From NCBI GenBank assembly GCA_018623495.1, contig JAAZVP010000011.1, forward strand, positions 1 to 58,690: 58,690 nt of DNA, in the 5' to 3' direction. The DNA comes from Halothiobacillus sp. GTDB taxonomy: Bacteria > Pseudomonadota > Gammaproteobacteria > JAAZVP01. The position numbers and the translations under genes were made by a program. Below are positions 1-19,338 of this stretch, in pieces; the stretch's first letter is position 1; each line of letters opens with the position of its first letter. The notes beneath the pieces were generated by a model, which worked only from the letters and a program-made list of their open reading frames with translations, had not been told where the DNA came from and did no database searches.

Positions 1-1
1 T

Positions 2-293
2 GGCTCGCGTTCGCCGAGCTGCGGGGCCGTGCGGGAACAGGCCGCGGGGCGGGAACCTTCCCTGGTGCGGAGGTTCAGCTCGCCATCCATGGCTCGCGTT
101 CGCCGAGCTGCGGGGCCGTGCGGGAACAGGCCGCGGGGACGGAAACCTTCCCTGGTGCGGAGGTTCAGCTCGCCATCCATGGCTCGCGTTCGCCGAGCTG
201 CGGGGCCGTGCGGGAACAAGCCGCGGGGACGGGAACCTTCCCTGGTGCGGAGGTTCAGCTCGCCATCCGTGGCTCGCGTTCGCCGAGCTGCGG
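2..293. repeat. 90-bp tandem repeat array (about 3.25 copies, truncated by window edge)
   Basis: Three near-identical units begin at 2, 91 and 181 with GGCTCGCGTTCGCCGAGC, and a partial fourth unit runs from 271 to about 293. The first unit is 89 bp because one base is missing; the next two are 90 bp. Units differ at only a few positions, so the array looks recently amplified. It lies just past the 3' end of xerD and probably continues beyond base 1. The 90-bp period is a multiple of three and leaves reading frames open on both strands, but I see no start signal or protein family there and treat it as a non-coding repeat. Confidence 0.9.
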
Positions 294-321
294 AGCGACA
301 TTGGGTCGCTCCGGTCTCGGC

Positions 322-15882: not shown

Positions 15883-16416
15883 TCACATCAACGAGCGCCC
15901 ACCTTCGCCGCCCGGGCGATGCCCCCAAACCGTGGTGAAATGCAGCCCGAAACCCGCTGCAGTCCGCTGGTCACAGTATCCCCCGGCGGCGCGCGCGGCC
16001 ACAATGACCGCGTTGCGATTACGGTGCTTGTGGGCGATGCGCTCCAGTCGCGGTGGCGGAGGACGGCGCTGCGCCTTCGGGATGTTCACGTCGTCTTCCT
16101 GCTTCGCATGGCGCACGCGGCGCGCTACGAAAGCCCCATCACCCAAAAACGCCGGTCCCTCGAGGTTGTTCCAGGTGGAGTCCACCCCGATCCCTTCGGC
16201 GACGATACGGGTGAAACGCTGTATGGCCATCGCGCGGCGTTCAGCGAATGCCGCCAGCAGCCCGTCGGTCGCCTGCCACTCCGTCGCGCCCACCGTACCG
16301 CTCAACGCTCAATCGCTGCCCCACGCCCCCGGTCCGGATCGAGCACCATGCCTGCCCGTACCGGGTTGAGCACCACCTAGCGCGCCAGCGAACTCAATGC
16401 GGATGGGGCGGGCCAT
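15883..16416 (-). pseudogene. REP-associated tyrosine transposase (RAYT) remnant
   Basis: Three pieces of one gene remain in three frames. From the ATG at 16416, behind GAGGAGGG, comes MARPIRIEFAGAL, the standard RAYT start. It jumps directly into VVLNPVRAGMVLDPD in a second frame, skipping over 100 codons that would hold the HUH and catalytic Tyr motifs. After another shift near 16300 a third frame gives AFAERRAMAIQRF, then FLGDGAFVARRV, PKAQRRPP and the C-terminal helix-turn-helix FGLHFTTV. The element cannot be active. RAYTs are linked to spread of REP palindromes, such as those at 8437 and 23035. Its start codon lies only 27 bases from the end of the cassette array at 16443. Confidence 0.85.
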
Positions 16417-16442: not shown

Positions 16443-16530
16443 GCACTACGCCCCAATTCACCGGCGGAAAAAAGCAGAGCGAGGAACGAGCGGCAATTTT
16501 TGCCGTACGACTGAATTTGCCTTGTTATGT
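16443..16530 (-). other. attC-like site, 3' end of the array
   Basis: On the minus strand the site starts with ACATAAC (16530–16524), seven bases after the stop of the 70-codon gene, and ends with GTAGTGC (16449–16443), a degenerate GTTRRRY. The outer arms pair: AAGGCAAATTCA near one end against TGAATTGGGGC near the other. An inner hairpin CGGCAA/TTGCCG lies at 16491–16505. At 88 bp it has normal attC size. The damaged right core suggests it is no longer a good recombination substrate. Confidence 0.65.
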
Positions 16531-16537
16531 GTTGTAT

Positions 16538-16750
16538 TTATAGGAAACACTGTTGTCTTACTTGATTTGCCCCAAAGACATTTTCAACTGCGACATCACA
16601 TACACAGCCTTGAGTAAGACTCTTGTAGGTTTCATCGCCCATGCCATAAAAATCAGCGTGAGACACAATATCTCCGATTTCTGTTTCACGAGAATCAAGC
16701 ATCTCGAACATAACAAATTCTTCGCCGCCATCAGTCTCGGCTGCGTACAT
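16538..16750 (-). CDS. Cassette-borne small protein of unknown function (70 aa)
   Basis: 70 residues, acidic, no membrane segment. The sequence (EEFVMFEMLDSRETEIGDIVSH) suggests a small beta-rich fold, and two cysteines occur in QGCVCDVAVENV. An in-frame stop lies shortly upstream, so the ATG at 16750 is the only sensible start; no Shine-Dalgarno is visible, as is common for cassettes. It is the last gene of the array, followed within seven bases by the attC-like site. Proteins of this look are frequent hypothetical cassette products; I assign no function. Confidence 0.65.
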   Translation of the reverse strand: MYAAETDGGEEFVMFEMLDSRETEIGDIVSHADFYGMGDETYKSLTQGCVCDVAVENVFGANQVRQQCFL

Positions 16751-16765
16751 GCTACGATTCGTGGT

Positions 16766-16796
16766 GTATAACTCTTATGGCACCCTTAATTTATGT
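16766..16796 (-). other. Short attC-like junction
   Basis: On the minus strand ACATAAA (16796–16790) and GTTATAC (16772–16766) are spaced 17 bases apart, between the SWIM gene stop and the 70-codon gene. The ends resemble attC cores but the central palindrome is missing, so this could be a collapsed site or chance. Confidence 0.35.
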
Positions 16797-16798
16797 TT

Positions 16799-17134
16799 TT
16801 AATCTTTCATTGCCGTTGCCACAACTTTCTTTGCAGCAGAAAGCTCTTTTTTTACTCTTGCTGCTTCATATTCCAACTCCCGCATTTTTTGTATTGCTTC
16901 ATCTACGTCCGTGCCAGGCAACCAAGATTGAACAACTTCTACATCATCCAGATTATCGCTAACAATTCCTTTTGTTATTCCAGCTAGGATATTGAATCTA
17001 TGTTTGCAATATTGGCCATTTCCTCCTGCGGGACATGAACAATATGCCGACAGATTGGTATCTGACCTTTTAACAAAGACGACCTCATATGGCTCAGCAG
17101 CAGAGCCTTGAACTTCAAATGATATTTCCTGCAT
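16799..17134 (-). CDS. SWIM-type zinc-finger protein, cassette-borne (111 aa)
   Basis: 111 residues. A SWIM motif CxCx8CxH is formed by Cys32, Cys34, Cys43 and His45 (YCSCPAGGNGQYCKH), which should bind one zinc ion and commonly mediates DNA or protein contact. The C-terminal third (about 80–108: IQKMRELEYEAARVKKELSAAKK) looks like a coiled coil, so it may dimerise. An AGAGAGG site stands before the ATG at 17134. Third gene in the cassette array. SWIM domains usually sit in larger ATPases or transposase-like proteins; a stand-alone SWIM plus coiled coil of this size is unusual. Role unknown. Confidence 0.75.
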   Translation of the reverse strand: MQEISFEVQGSAAEPYEVVFVKRSDTNLSAYCSCPAGGNGQYCKHRFNILAGITKGIVSDNLDDVEVVQSWLPGTDVDEAIQKMRELEYEAARVKKELSAAKKVVATAMKD

Positions 17135-17152
17135 TGCTTGCCTCTCTTTTAC

Positions 17153-17172
17153 ACATAACGCCTGAGTTATCC
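17153..17172 (-). other. Short attC-like junction
   Basis: Directly after the stop of the 203-codon gene the minus strand reads GGATAAC, TCAGGC, GTTATGT. These are an inverse-core-like and a core-like heptamer only six bases apart. A complete attC would have a 50–130 bp palindromic region between them, so this looks like a collapsed attC or a simple site. Confidence 0.45.
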
Positions 17173-17173
17173 G

Positions 17174-17785
17174 TCACGGCTCCACCATTAGCAGCGGAAC
17201 ACTAATCCATTGTTTGAAGTGAGTTTGTGCTGAAAACACACGGACTAGCGCTTTGATTGGGAGCTCTATAGGACCAACAACTGTATCTATCAATTCCTTG
17301 AATGCAGCGACCCCTGATGAAAAATAGTCATCGGTAGGTATCAATGCAACTTTCCCAGACTCCGACTGAACAGCGAAATAGTGCTCCTCGGCTACCAATC
17401 GCTCTCTGTCGGCAGGATTGGGTTCTTTGGGCTTCCCAATTATGGTGATGGGGTAACTTCGACGCTTCACCTCAACTTTGTCGATGGTGAGAAACCCGCT
17501 AATCCAACAGATTGAGGACGAACTACCAAAGTCGTGATTGCACTCTGATATCTTTGGGTATTCCTCCAACTTGGCCATTAATGACCGGAACATTTCAACA
17601 GTTGATACCGAATACGACTTGCTTTCAACCGAGCTAGCACCTGCCGAAAACAATGGGATTGCTGCAGCAGCTCGCATTCCTTCAGTCTTCGTGATTTTTG
17701 TTTCTGGCGAGTACCCGCATTCGGCCTCATAGAGGCTCGCTATGAACTCCCTATCTAGGTAAACAAGCTTATCGTTCAGATTCAC
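17174..17785 (-). CDS. Cassette-borne protein of unknown function (203 aa)
   Basis: 203 residues, soluble by appearance, no signal peptide. It begins VNLNDKLVYLDREFIASLYE with a GTG start at 17785. The middle is rich in Ser and Ala (AIPLFSAGASSVESKSYSVS), and beta-strand-like stretches follow (VEVKRRSYPITIIGKP, HYFAVQSESGKVALIP). The YLD-start pattern is faintly reminiscent of DUF6414-type proteins, but I cannot support that assignment. It lies between two attC-like sites and has no clear ribosome site. Second gene in the array. Confidence 0.65.
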   Translation of the reverse strand: MNLNDKLVYLDREFIASLYEAECGYSPETKITKTEGMRAAAAIPLFSAGASSVESKSYSVSTVEMFRSLMAKLEEYPKISECNHDFGSSSSICWISGFLTIDKVEVKRRSYPITIIGKPKEPNPADRERLVAEEHYFAVQSESGKVALIPTDDYFSSGVAAFKELIDTVVGPIELPIKALVRVFSAQTHFKQWISVPLLMVEP

Positions 17786-17811
17786 AGGATTTCCACGTAT
17801 GTCTGTGTGAC

Positions 17812-17889
17812 GGCTGACGCGAAGCTTTGCGGCAGTTTTGGAGCCGCAAAGCGGCGGAAAAACTGTCCGACAACAGCGACTGGTTAGGT
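17812..17889 (-). other. attC-like site with palindromic centre
   Basis: On the minus strand it begins with a perfect inverse core ACCTAAC (17889–17883), 16 bases after the stop of the first cassette gene. A long imperfect palindrome follows at 17868–17831 (GGACAGTTTTTCCGCCGC against GCGGCTCCAAAACTGCC, loop TTT). It ends near GTCAGCC (17818–17812), a weak match to GTTRRRY. Size about 78 bp. Confidence 0.65.
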
Positions 17890-17904
17890 TTCTATCCCAT
17901 TGGT

Positions 17905-18797
17905 TCAGTTGATATTTAAAGCTGAAGCGAGCTCTTCCTGTATTTGTTCATTTTGGCCAGATGTACCAACACGAGGATTCACACCCCACTGAGCTGTGTG
18001 TACCAGCAAGTTGCGCTCTTCCGATGTGGACATAAACGCAAAGCGGACGATTGTTCCGATTACTTTACGATCCCGTCTCTCATAAACCCTTTGCCAAACA
18101 GGTGCAAAGCGTTCAATGAGTTTGTTCATTAAGCGGTCGACTGATTGGAGCAAATGCGCATCATTTTCCCGGAAGAAGATGCGATCCCCCGGGTTGAAGA
18201 TTTTCGATACATCAAGGGCGACCATTCCTCTATGCCCCGAACCTGTCTTCTTTTTGAAGACCTCTTCTAGTTGGCGTGAGGCTTTTCTGACGTTTTTCTC
18301 AATTTTTTTTCAGACGTTACGCGCTTGCACTCGACCCAAATTTTTCTCCCGCCAAAAAACACCCCGGTATCTGAGGGCGCATCGAGAATTGCGGATGCAC
18401 CTCTAGATGGTGCATGGAGTTTTGCCGCAACCAAGGCCTCAAAAAGAAAGTTCCTAGCTGTTGCCAAAGCTGGAGTCTCTTCCTCCAAATTTATTGGGCC
18501 ATTCACTGCATTATTGAGCTTCGTGACAATCGCCTCAAGCGTTTCGACGGGAACATCTTTAAAGGCTTTGTAGACGCTCACAAAGTCATGAATTTCCAGC
18601 ATCGAATTCACGAAGCTCGGAAAGATTCTCCTTCCCTCTTCAATCGTCGCTGTCCTGTATGAATCAGTCCAATAGCTGACGATCCTCTGGTAATGCGATG
18701 TGCGTCCAGCTCCAAGATTGACCCCAATTTTCCGCATCCATTCAAGGGCAGAAGTATAGCTTTCTAGGATGCCCTCATACGATTCAGAGTCGATCAT
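17905..18797 (-). pseudogene. PD-(D/E)xK nuclease-like gene split by a one-base frameshift
   Basis: The first part (18797 to 18267) gives 176 residues, then stops. Adding one base at the A8 run (plus-strand T8, 18303–18310) joins it to the second frame and yields about 297 residues ending at 17905. Candidate active-site residues are Glu120 (helix NFLFEALVAAKL), Asp139 or Asp143, and Glu156-x-Lys158 (KIWVECKR), as in restriction-endonuclease-like folds. The reconnected region reads RQLEEVFKKKTGSGHRGMVALDVSK. The ATG at 18797 is only 10 bases from the integration core and has no ribosome site, typical of a first cassette. It may be truly broken, phase-variable by slippage, or a sequencing error. 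Confidence 0.7.
18303..18310 (-). repeat. A8 homopolymer at the frameshift
   Basis: Eight A on the coding strand (TCTG then A8 then TTGAG). Nine A, or a -1 slip, would restore the long reading frame of the nuclease-like gene. Confidence 0.8.
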
Positions 18798-18807
18798 AAT
18801 GTCGAAA

Positions 18808-18814
18808 ACCTAAC
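18808..18814 (-). other. Integron core site GTTAGGT at the 5' edge of the array
   Basis: A perfect GTTRRRY on the minus strand, at the exact point where base composition changes. The flanking GCGCAGCAGGGGT upstream of it is GC-rich host-like sequence. Confidence 0.55.
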
Positions 18815-19338
18815 ACCCCTGCTGCGCTCACCATCTCCGACCGCCGCTCCCGTCGGCCTGTCCGGCTTGCTGCGCACGGCGCCTGGCCGGGGCAGGCGGA
18901 ACGGCTCATGGCCATCGGCATGCCTGACTCGATGGATGTCGGGAGCGGTGCGGGTGGGCAAGGCGGGGCCGGGGGAACGCGGGATGGTCCCTGGACGGTG
19001 GGGATGGCGCCAGGATGGATTCGGCGGCGGGCCGGGAACGGCCGTGGGTCGGTCGGTGTTTCGGGCGCGGAACGGTGGCATCGCTGACCGTCCTTGGTGG
19101 TCTCTCGGTTACGTTATTCGGGGGCGTGGTGGGGTGTCAATCGGGGGTTTCGGTTGGCGGGGTAATTGGGGTTCCGGGGATGGGTTCGCCTGCGGGGGAG
19201 GCTGGTACGCGGGCGGTTTCCCGGCCGGTTTCGCGCAGGCAATGAGCCGGGATGCGCCCTGGAAGATTCGCGCCGCGGACGGCGCTCCCACGGGGATCGC
19301 TTGGCGGCTCTTCCAGCTGTCAGCTTCGAGCTTCCGGC
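18815..19338. other. Intergenic stretch right of the cassette array
   Basis: About 520 bases of GC-rich sequence. Open frames on both strands are Pro/Arg- or Gly-rich, without start signals or recognisable motifs. No integron integrase, attI-plus-promoter arrangement or tRNA is visible. It lies downstream of the catabolic operon (which ends at 19339) and upstream of the first cassette. Confidence 0.6.

What the first reader, a model, noticed from the sequence alone, without database searches (positions are those of the whole stretch)
16443..18814. Integron cassette array without integrase embedded in a high-GC chromosome
Four AT-rich, same-strand genes are bounded by a perfect GTTAGGT core on one side and an attC-like site on the other, with attC-like sites between them. 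The first gene begins 10 bases from the core without a ribosome site. This is the known layout of cassette clusters lacking intI (CALIN). None of the four products has an assigned function, so this is the likeliest place for an undescribed system.
Basis: partly seen in the sequence, partly recalled or inferred. Interest (0 to 1): 0.75.

Follow-up and report, generated by a model that had tools for sequence, protein, structure and literature searches.

The report
Stranded integron cassettes without an integrase
A 2.4 kb block of foreign, AT-rich genes sits in a high-GC bacterial chromosome as a small integron cassette array whose integrase is missing; this is a known kind of element, but one of its genes belongs to an undescribed nuclease-like family that looks connected to anti-phage defence and is broken in this copy.

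Summary
Cassette 1 is found core to core, at 86% and 83% DNA identity, as a cassette in Halomonas ventosae and a Marinobacter MAG, flanked there by different sequence. The 99%-complete genome has only XerC and XerD, no IntI. It is a CALIN, ordinary in kind.

Corrections: the first two ORFs are one 297-aa gene broken by a one-base deletion in a poly-A run (intact in all six relatives). Only one complete attC lies between the genes; a second is a 20-nt remnant. The SWIM-finger gene and the 70-aa gene probably form one cassette. The genes are unrelated cargo, not a system.

The cassette-1 family has PD-(D/E)XK-like motifs, no Pfam, NCBIfam or PADLOC model, and relatives beside defence-type genes. 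An anti-phage nuclease is plausible but unproven.

The parts
18808..18814 (-). GTTAGGT core at the 5' end of the array; crossover between G18814 and T18813
   Evidence: Sequence; same core starts the same cassette in Halomonas and Marinobacter
17818..18813 (-). Cassette 1 (996 bp), one gene split by a frameshift
   Evidence: 86% and 83% DNA identity core to core in L119 and L118
18267..18797 (-). N-terminal ORF of the PD-(D/E)XK-like nuclease gene (176 aa, ends out of frame)
   Evidence: 80-82% aa identity to residues 1-172 of the intact 297-aa relatives
18303..18310 (-). A8 run with a one-base deletion relative to the relatives; the site of the frameshift
   Evidence: Alignment with L118 and L119
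17905..18303 (-). C-terminal part of the same gene, in the other frame (132 aa)
   Evidence: 86-91% aa identity to the C-terminal part of the relatives
17812..17889 (-). attC1: R'' ACCTAAC (pairs 7/7 with the core at 18814), R' GTCAGCC (off consensus)
   Evidence: CM R1 E 0.0017, R2 E 0.0023; aligns to the attC of the same cassette in L118 and L119; single-strand DNA fold z -2.9
17159..17817 (-). Cassette 2 (659 bp) without a complete attC of its own
   Evidence: Boundaries inferred from attC1 and the core at 17159
17174..17785 (-). 203-aa protein, unknown function, GTG start
   Evidence: No Pfam, NCBIfam, PADLOC or PHROG match; distant relatives only (25% Synechococcus plasmid, 28% G285)
17153..17172 (-). 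Remnant of attC2 (ATAAC-TCAGGC-GTTAT) with core GTTATGT opening cassette 3
   Evidence: Sequence and small hairpin only; not found by the attC models
16449..17158 (-). Cassette 3 (710 bp) with two genes
   Evidence: Core GTTATGT is a 7/7 complement of R'' ACATAAC of attC3; the two-gene reading is inference
16799..17134 (-). 111-aa SWIM zinc-finger protein
   Evidence: Pfam SWIM 18.7 bits, just under cut-off 19.6; relative L138 at 65% scores above it
16538..16750 (-). 70-aa protein, unknown function
   Evidence: 38% relative on a Frigidibacter plasmid
16443..16530 (-). attC3: R'' ACATAAC, R' GTAGTGC, whose last six bases come from the insertion site
   Evidence: CM R2 67.4 bits, E 4e-19; related sites in 48 other genomes of the class
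15883..16416 (-). Right flank: probable remnant of a RAYT-like transposase (MARPIRIEFAGAL start, then a degraded C-terminal part)
   Evidence: 77% over 13 aa to a RAYT-like start in L093; 26% to a Legionella transposase

Best explanation
A CALIN: three integron cassettes (2365 bp) recombined as cassettes into a high-GC chromosome at a G|T site upstream of a RAYT-like transposase remnant, in a genome in which no integron integrase was found. Most likely an IntI acting from elsewhere (an incoming element or a lost integron) placed the cassettes at a non-attI secondary (attG-type) site, in one or more steps, and the array has since been stranded. Cassette 1 carries a PD-(D/E)XK-like nuclease gene, probably an anti-phage or restriction gene, now frameshifted. 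Cassette 2 carries a 203-aa protein of unknown function. Cassette 3 carries a SWIM zinc-finger protein, probably nucleic-acid binding, and a 70-aa protein. Expression would depend on read-through from outside, since the only promoter-like site found lies inside cassette 1. Shown: the attC sites, the cassette-1 boundaries, the shared cassette 1, no IntI in the held genome, the frameshift. Inferred: the trans-acting integrase, the attG route, the protein functions, present immobility.
For: Two attC sites found by models made without them, at the array end and between genes. Cassette 1 is shared core to core with Halomonas and Marinobacter, where sequence beyond differs. R'' of attC1 pairs 7/7 with the first core, R'' of attC3 7/7 with the core at 17159. 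Both ends of the foreign DNA fall on a G|T crossover. AT-rich block in a GC-rich chromosome. Only XerC and XerD in the genome.
Against: Both R' boxes (GTCAGCC, GTAGTGC) lack the consensus GTTRRRY. Cassette 2 has no complete attC. The genome is a 110-contig draft, so an intI on a missing 1% cannot be excluded. No relative with the empty site is held.
Confidence: 0.93

Rival explanations
1. The array is the remains of a complete resident integron whose intI and attI were deleted, rather than an insertion at a secondary site.
For: Loss of the integrase is the usual proposal for CALINs (PMC9024848, PMC11389934); an IntI above cut-off is common in the class, 138 of 369 genomes.
Against: No intI remnant was found in the genome. 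Both flanks are host-like in GC, and the joined flanks need no deletion to explain them. I did not search specifically for an attI remnant, so this is weak.
Confidence: 0.25
2. The block is an assembly artefact: integron DNA of another community member joined into this contig.
For: Draft assembly in 110 contigs; strong GC contrast.
Against: High-GC sequence lies on both sides, and both joins fall exactly on integron crossover points, which a random chimera would not do.
Confidence: 0.04
3. The genes form one functional defence operon or system acquired together.
For: Same strand, adjacent, no assigned function for most of them.
Against: Cassette 1 occurs in Halomonas, Marinobacter and Thiomicrorhabdus without the others; no fetched locus of another genome holds two of the genes. 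The first gene is broken.
Confidence: 0.03

Closest known systems
[quoted passage not shown] Cury et al. 2016, PMC4889954; IntegronFinder 2.0, PMC9024848)
   Different: Very small; one internal attC reduced to a remnant; off-consensus R' boxes; first gene frameshifted
Cassette insertion at attG secondary sites (Loot et al. 2024, doi 10.1038/s41564-023-01548-y, known here only through citing papers)
   Same: Cassettes in a chromosome away from any attI, joined at G|T at both ends
   Different: The match to the attG consensus was not tested; no empty site is available; three cassettes rather than one
PD-(D/E)XK nucleases (Mrr-type and relatives)
   Same: Invariant E, D, E-x-K and Q in the expected order; an Mrr_cat gene followed by an attC-like site occurs independently in L023
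   Different: No detectable Pfam, NCBIfam or PADLOC match; long N-terminal helical part; broken in the window
SWIM zinc-finger proteins and PADLOC candidate PDC-S62
   Same: C-x-C...C-x-H finger; similarity to an N-terminal part of PDC-S62 (E 3e-5)
   Different: Only 111 aa, matching 92 of the 566 positions of the PDC-S62 profile

Membership tests
CALIN | At least two attC sites close together | tested here: met
   17889-17812 and 16530-16443, 1.3 kb apart; with my own models, not IntegronFinder's
CALIN | No integron integrase at the locus | tested here: met
   No match over the curated cut-off in the genome; only XerC and XerD
CALIN | Segments behave as mobile cassettes | tested here: met
   Cassette 1 shared core to core in two other genera; not shown for cassettes 2 and 3
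Complete integron | intI with adjacent attI | tested here: not met
   No intI in the window or the held genome
attG insertion | Match of the uninterrupted target to the attG consensus | not tested
   Inferred site GGGGTG|TAGTGC; the defining paper is not in the library
PD-(D/E)XK nuclease | Catalytic residue pattern | tested here: met
   E120, D143, E156-x-K158, Q176 invariant in six relatives
PD-(D/E)XK nuclease | Fold | tested here: inconclusive
   pLDDT 62, no PDB match at E 0.001; element order compatible
PD-(D/E)XK nuclease | Nuclease activity | not testable with these tools
   Needs a bench assay
SWIM zinc finger | Pfam PF04434 above its cut-off | tested here: inconclusive
   18.7 bits against 19.6; the 65% relative in L138 scores 22.3

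The most novel reading that the evidence does not exclude
The cassette-1 protein represents an undescribed anti-phage nuclease family (PD-(D/E)XK type, about 297 aa) that travels both as a single-gene integron cassette (Halomonas, Marinobacter, Thiomicrorhabdus) and as cargo of integrase-bearing islands beside HNH/SAVED-effector-like or Abi genes (Acidovorax, Burkholderiales).
Probability: 0.35. Interest if true: 0.5.

Novelty: new member of a known kind. Interest (0 to 1): 0.33.

Why it matters
It is a clean example of integron cassettes lodged in a chromosome with no integrase in the held genome, with one cassette whose boundaries can be fixed to the base by relatives in other genera. The cassette-1 family has no Pfam, NCBIfam or PADLOC model and keeps company with defence genes, so its intact relatives are a ready candidate for a phage-resistance test.

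Tried and rejected
The in-window tyrosine recombinase (1242-322) first appeared as an integron-integrase hit but is XerD; the second hit is XerC. A simple AAC...GTTRRRY pattern over the genome was noise (161/142 hits, reversed control 137/175). My structural attC scan with strict GTT and AAC ends missed both sites, because their R' boxes are off consensus. A whole-genome scan with model R1 rang nowhere, not even at the known site, so it does not show that other attC sites are absent. A programmed frameshift at the A-run was considered and rejected: the relatives have one intact frame, and there the tract is interrupted by G. A 7-bp inverted repeat around the inferred empty site (CGCAGCA...TGCTGCG) is near chance, P about 0.013. 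Structure prediction of the 203-aa protein failed (pLDDT 34). Viral-contig scans found nothing for the 203-aa protein or the nuclease family. Rfam: only a tRNA. Free-energy folding supports hairpin structure for attC1 (z -2.9) but not for attC3 (z -0.1), whose R' comes from the host.

Full report
What is there. Read on the minus strand, the block begins with GTTAGGT (18814-18808) and ends at attC 16530-16443. The DNA between the two crossover points (18813-16449) is 2365 bp. Its three segments have 47, 47.5 and 42% GC against 69% for the rest of the window. All its genes lie on one strand.

attC sites. I built two covariance models from other genomes. R1 comes from 39 attC sites of intI-linked arrays in genomes of the same class. 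R2 comes from 23 relatives of the last site, leaving the window's own site out. R2 finds 16530-16443 with 67 bits, E 4e-19. R1 and R2 both find 17889-17812, with E about 0.002; it is the best hit of the whole window with R1. The last site has BLAST relatives in 48 other genomes out of 369 searched in the class, many ending at the G|T crossover.

Cassette 1. A scan of genome contigs with the first ORF found six relatives. In Halomonas ventosae and a Marinobacter MAG the whole cassette is present at 86% and 83% DNA identity. The homology starts at the GTTAGGT core and stops at the G of the attC R' box, with different sequence beyond. In both, and in Thiomicrorhabdus (49% aa identity), attC sites lie on both sides. 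This shows that the segment moves as a cassette. All six relatives carry one ORF of 296-299 aa. The window has a one-base deletion in an A-run (A8 at 18310-18303) that splits the gene into two ORFs. dN/dS is 0.06-0.18 on both sides of the break, so the break is recent or is a sequencing error.

Cassettes 2 and 3. The 203-aa gene (17785-17174) follows attC1; its own attC is reduced to about 20 nt (17172-17153). The next core, GTTATGT (17159-17153), is a perfect complement of R'' ACATAAC of the last attC. This suggests that the SWIM gene and the 70-aa gene form one cassette (inference). SWIM relatives occur in five other genomes of the class and in a viral contig. In L143 an attC of the same family as attC3 lies just upstream of the gene, and in L144 an attC lies just downstream.

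No integrase. The integron-integrase model finds only XerD (window 1242-322) and XerC in this genome, while 138 of 369 class genomes score above its cut-off. The genome is 98.97% complete but in 110 contigs.

Where it sits. The right join, G(16449)|T(16448), is followed about 30 bases on by the start of a probable RAYT-like transposase remnant (16416-15883). The left flank carries one copy of a dispersed repeat of about 41 nt that matches about 40 places in the genome. The inferred empty site is GGGGTG|TAGTGC. Insertion at an attG-type secondary site by an integrase acting in trans is my preferred route, but no relative with the empty site is held.

What it does. The cassette-1 family has invariant E120, D143, E156-x-K158 and Q176, the order expected of PD-(D/E)XK nucleases (my general knowledge of that superfamily). 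Single members match no relevant model in Pfam, NCBIfam or PADLOC; the predicted structure is of low confidence and has no significant PDB match. Outside integrons, relatives sit near tyrosine-integrase genes, with an HNH-type protein resembling SAVED/CBASS effectors directly upstream (L121, L122) or an Abi_alpha gene directly downstream (L120). In Thiomicrorhabdus a TIR-domain gene lies about 0.6 kb upstream. Guilt by association therefore points to anti-phage defence. A review of Xanthomonas integrons notes that about 20% of Vibrio cholerae cassettes of no predicted function encode phage defence (PMC12444791). In the window itself the gene is broken. The only promoter-like site found lies inside cassette 1, and chance alone would give more, so expression probably needs read-through.

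Verdict. A genuine, small, decayed CALIN: a known kind of element (PMC9024848, PMC11389934). The one new lead is the cassette-1 protein family.

Noticed in passing
window 19253-19296: Copy of a dispersed repeat of about 41 nt with about 40 matches in this genome, often in short arrays of copies spaced about 90-160 nt apart; it looks like a REP-type element.
   Followed up: partly
window 16416-15883 (-); genome contigs C5, C7, C8, C18, C80: RAYT-like transposase remnant directly downstream of the array; five Y1_Tnp matches elsewhere in the genome.
   Followed up: partly
L023:2294-2916: A single Mrr-type restriction endonuclease gene, followed by the 5' part of an attC of the attC3 family and preceded by GTTAGGT, sits alone in an AT-rich contig of G001: possibly another isolated cassette in a mobile element.
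   Followed up: partly
L121:4279-5859 and L122:4368-5915: Proteins of about 520 aa with an HNH-type N-terminus like SAVED/CBASS effectors (PADLOC PDC-M68A), no Pfam match, directly upstream of the cassette-1 nuclease homologue in two unrelated islands: a possible two-gene defence pair.
   Followed up: no
window 1-300: Tandem repeat next to the 3' end of xerD, visible as a repeated peptide in the open frames.
   Followed up: no
L117 (G285:C234:1040-1573): The only relative of the 203-aa protein in the 339 class genomes searched (28% identity) has two in-frame TGA codons, so it is probably a pseudogene.
   Followed up: no
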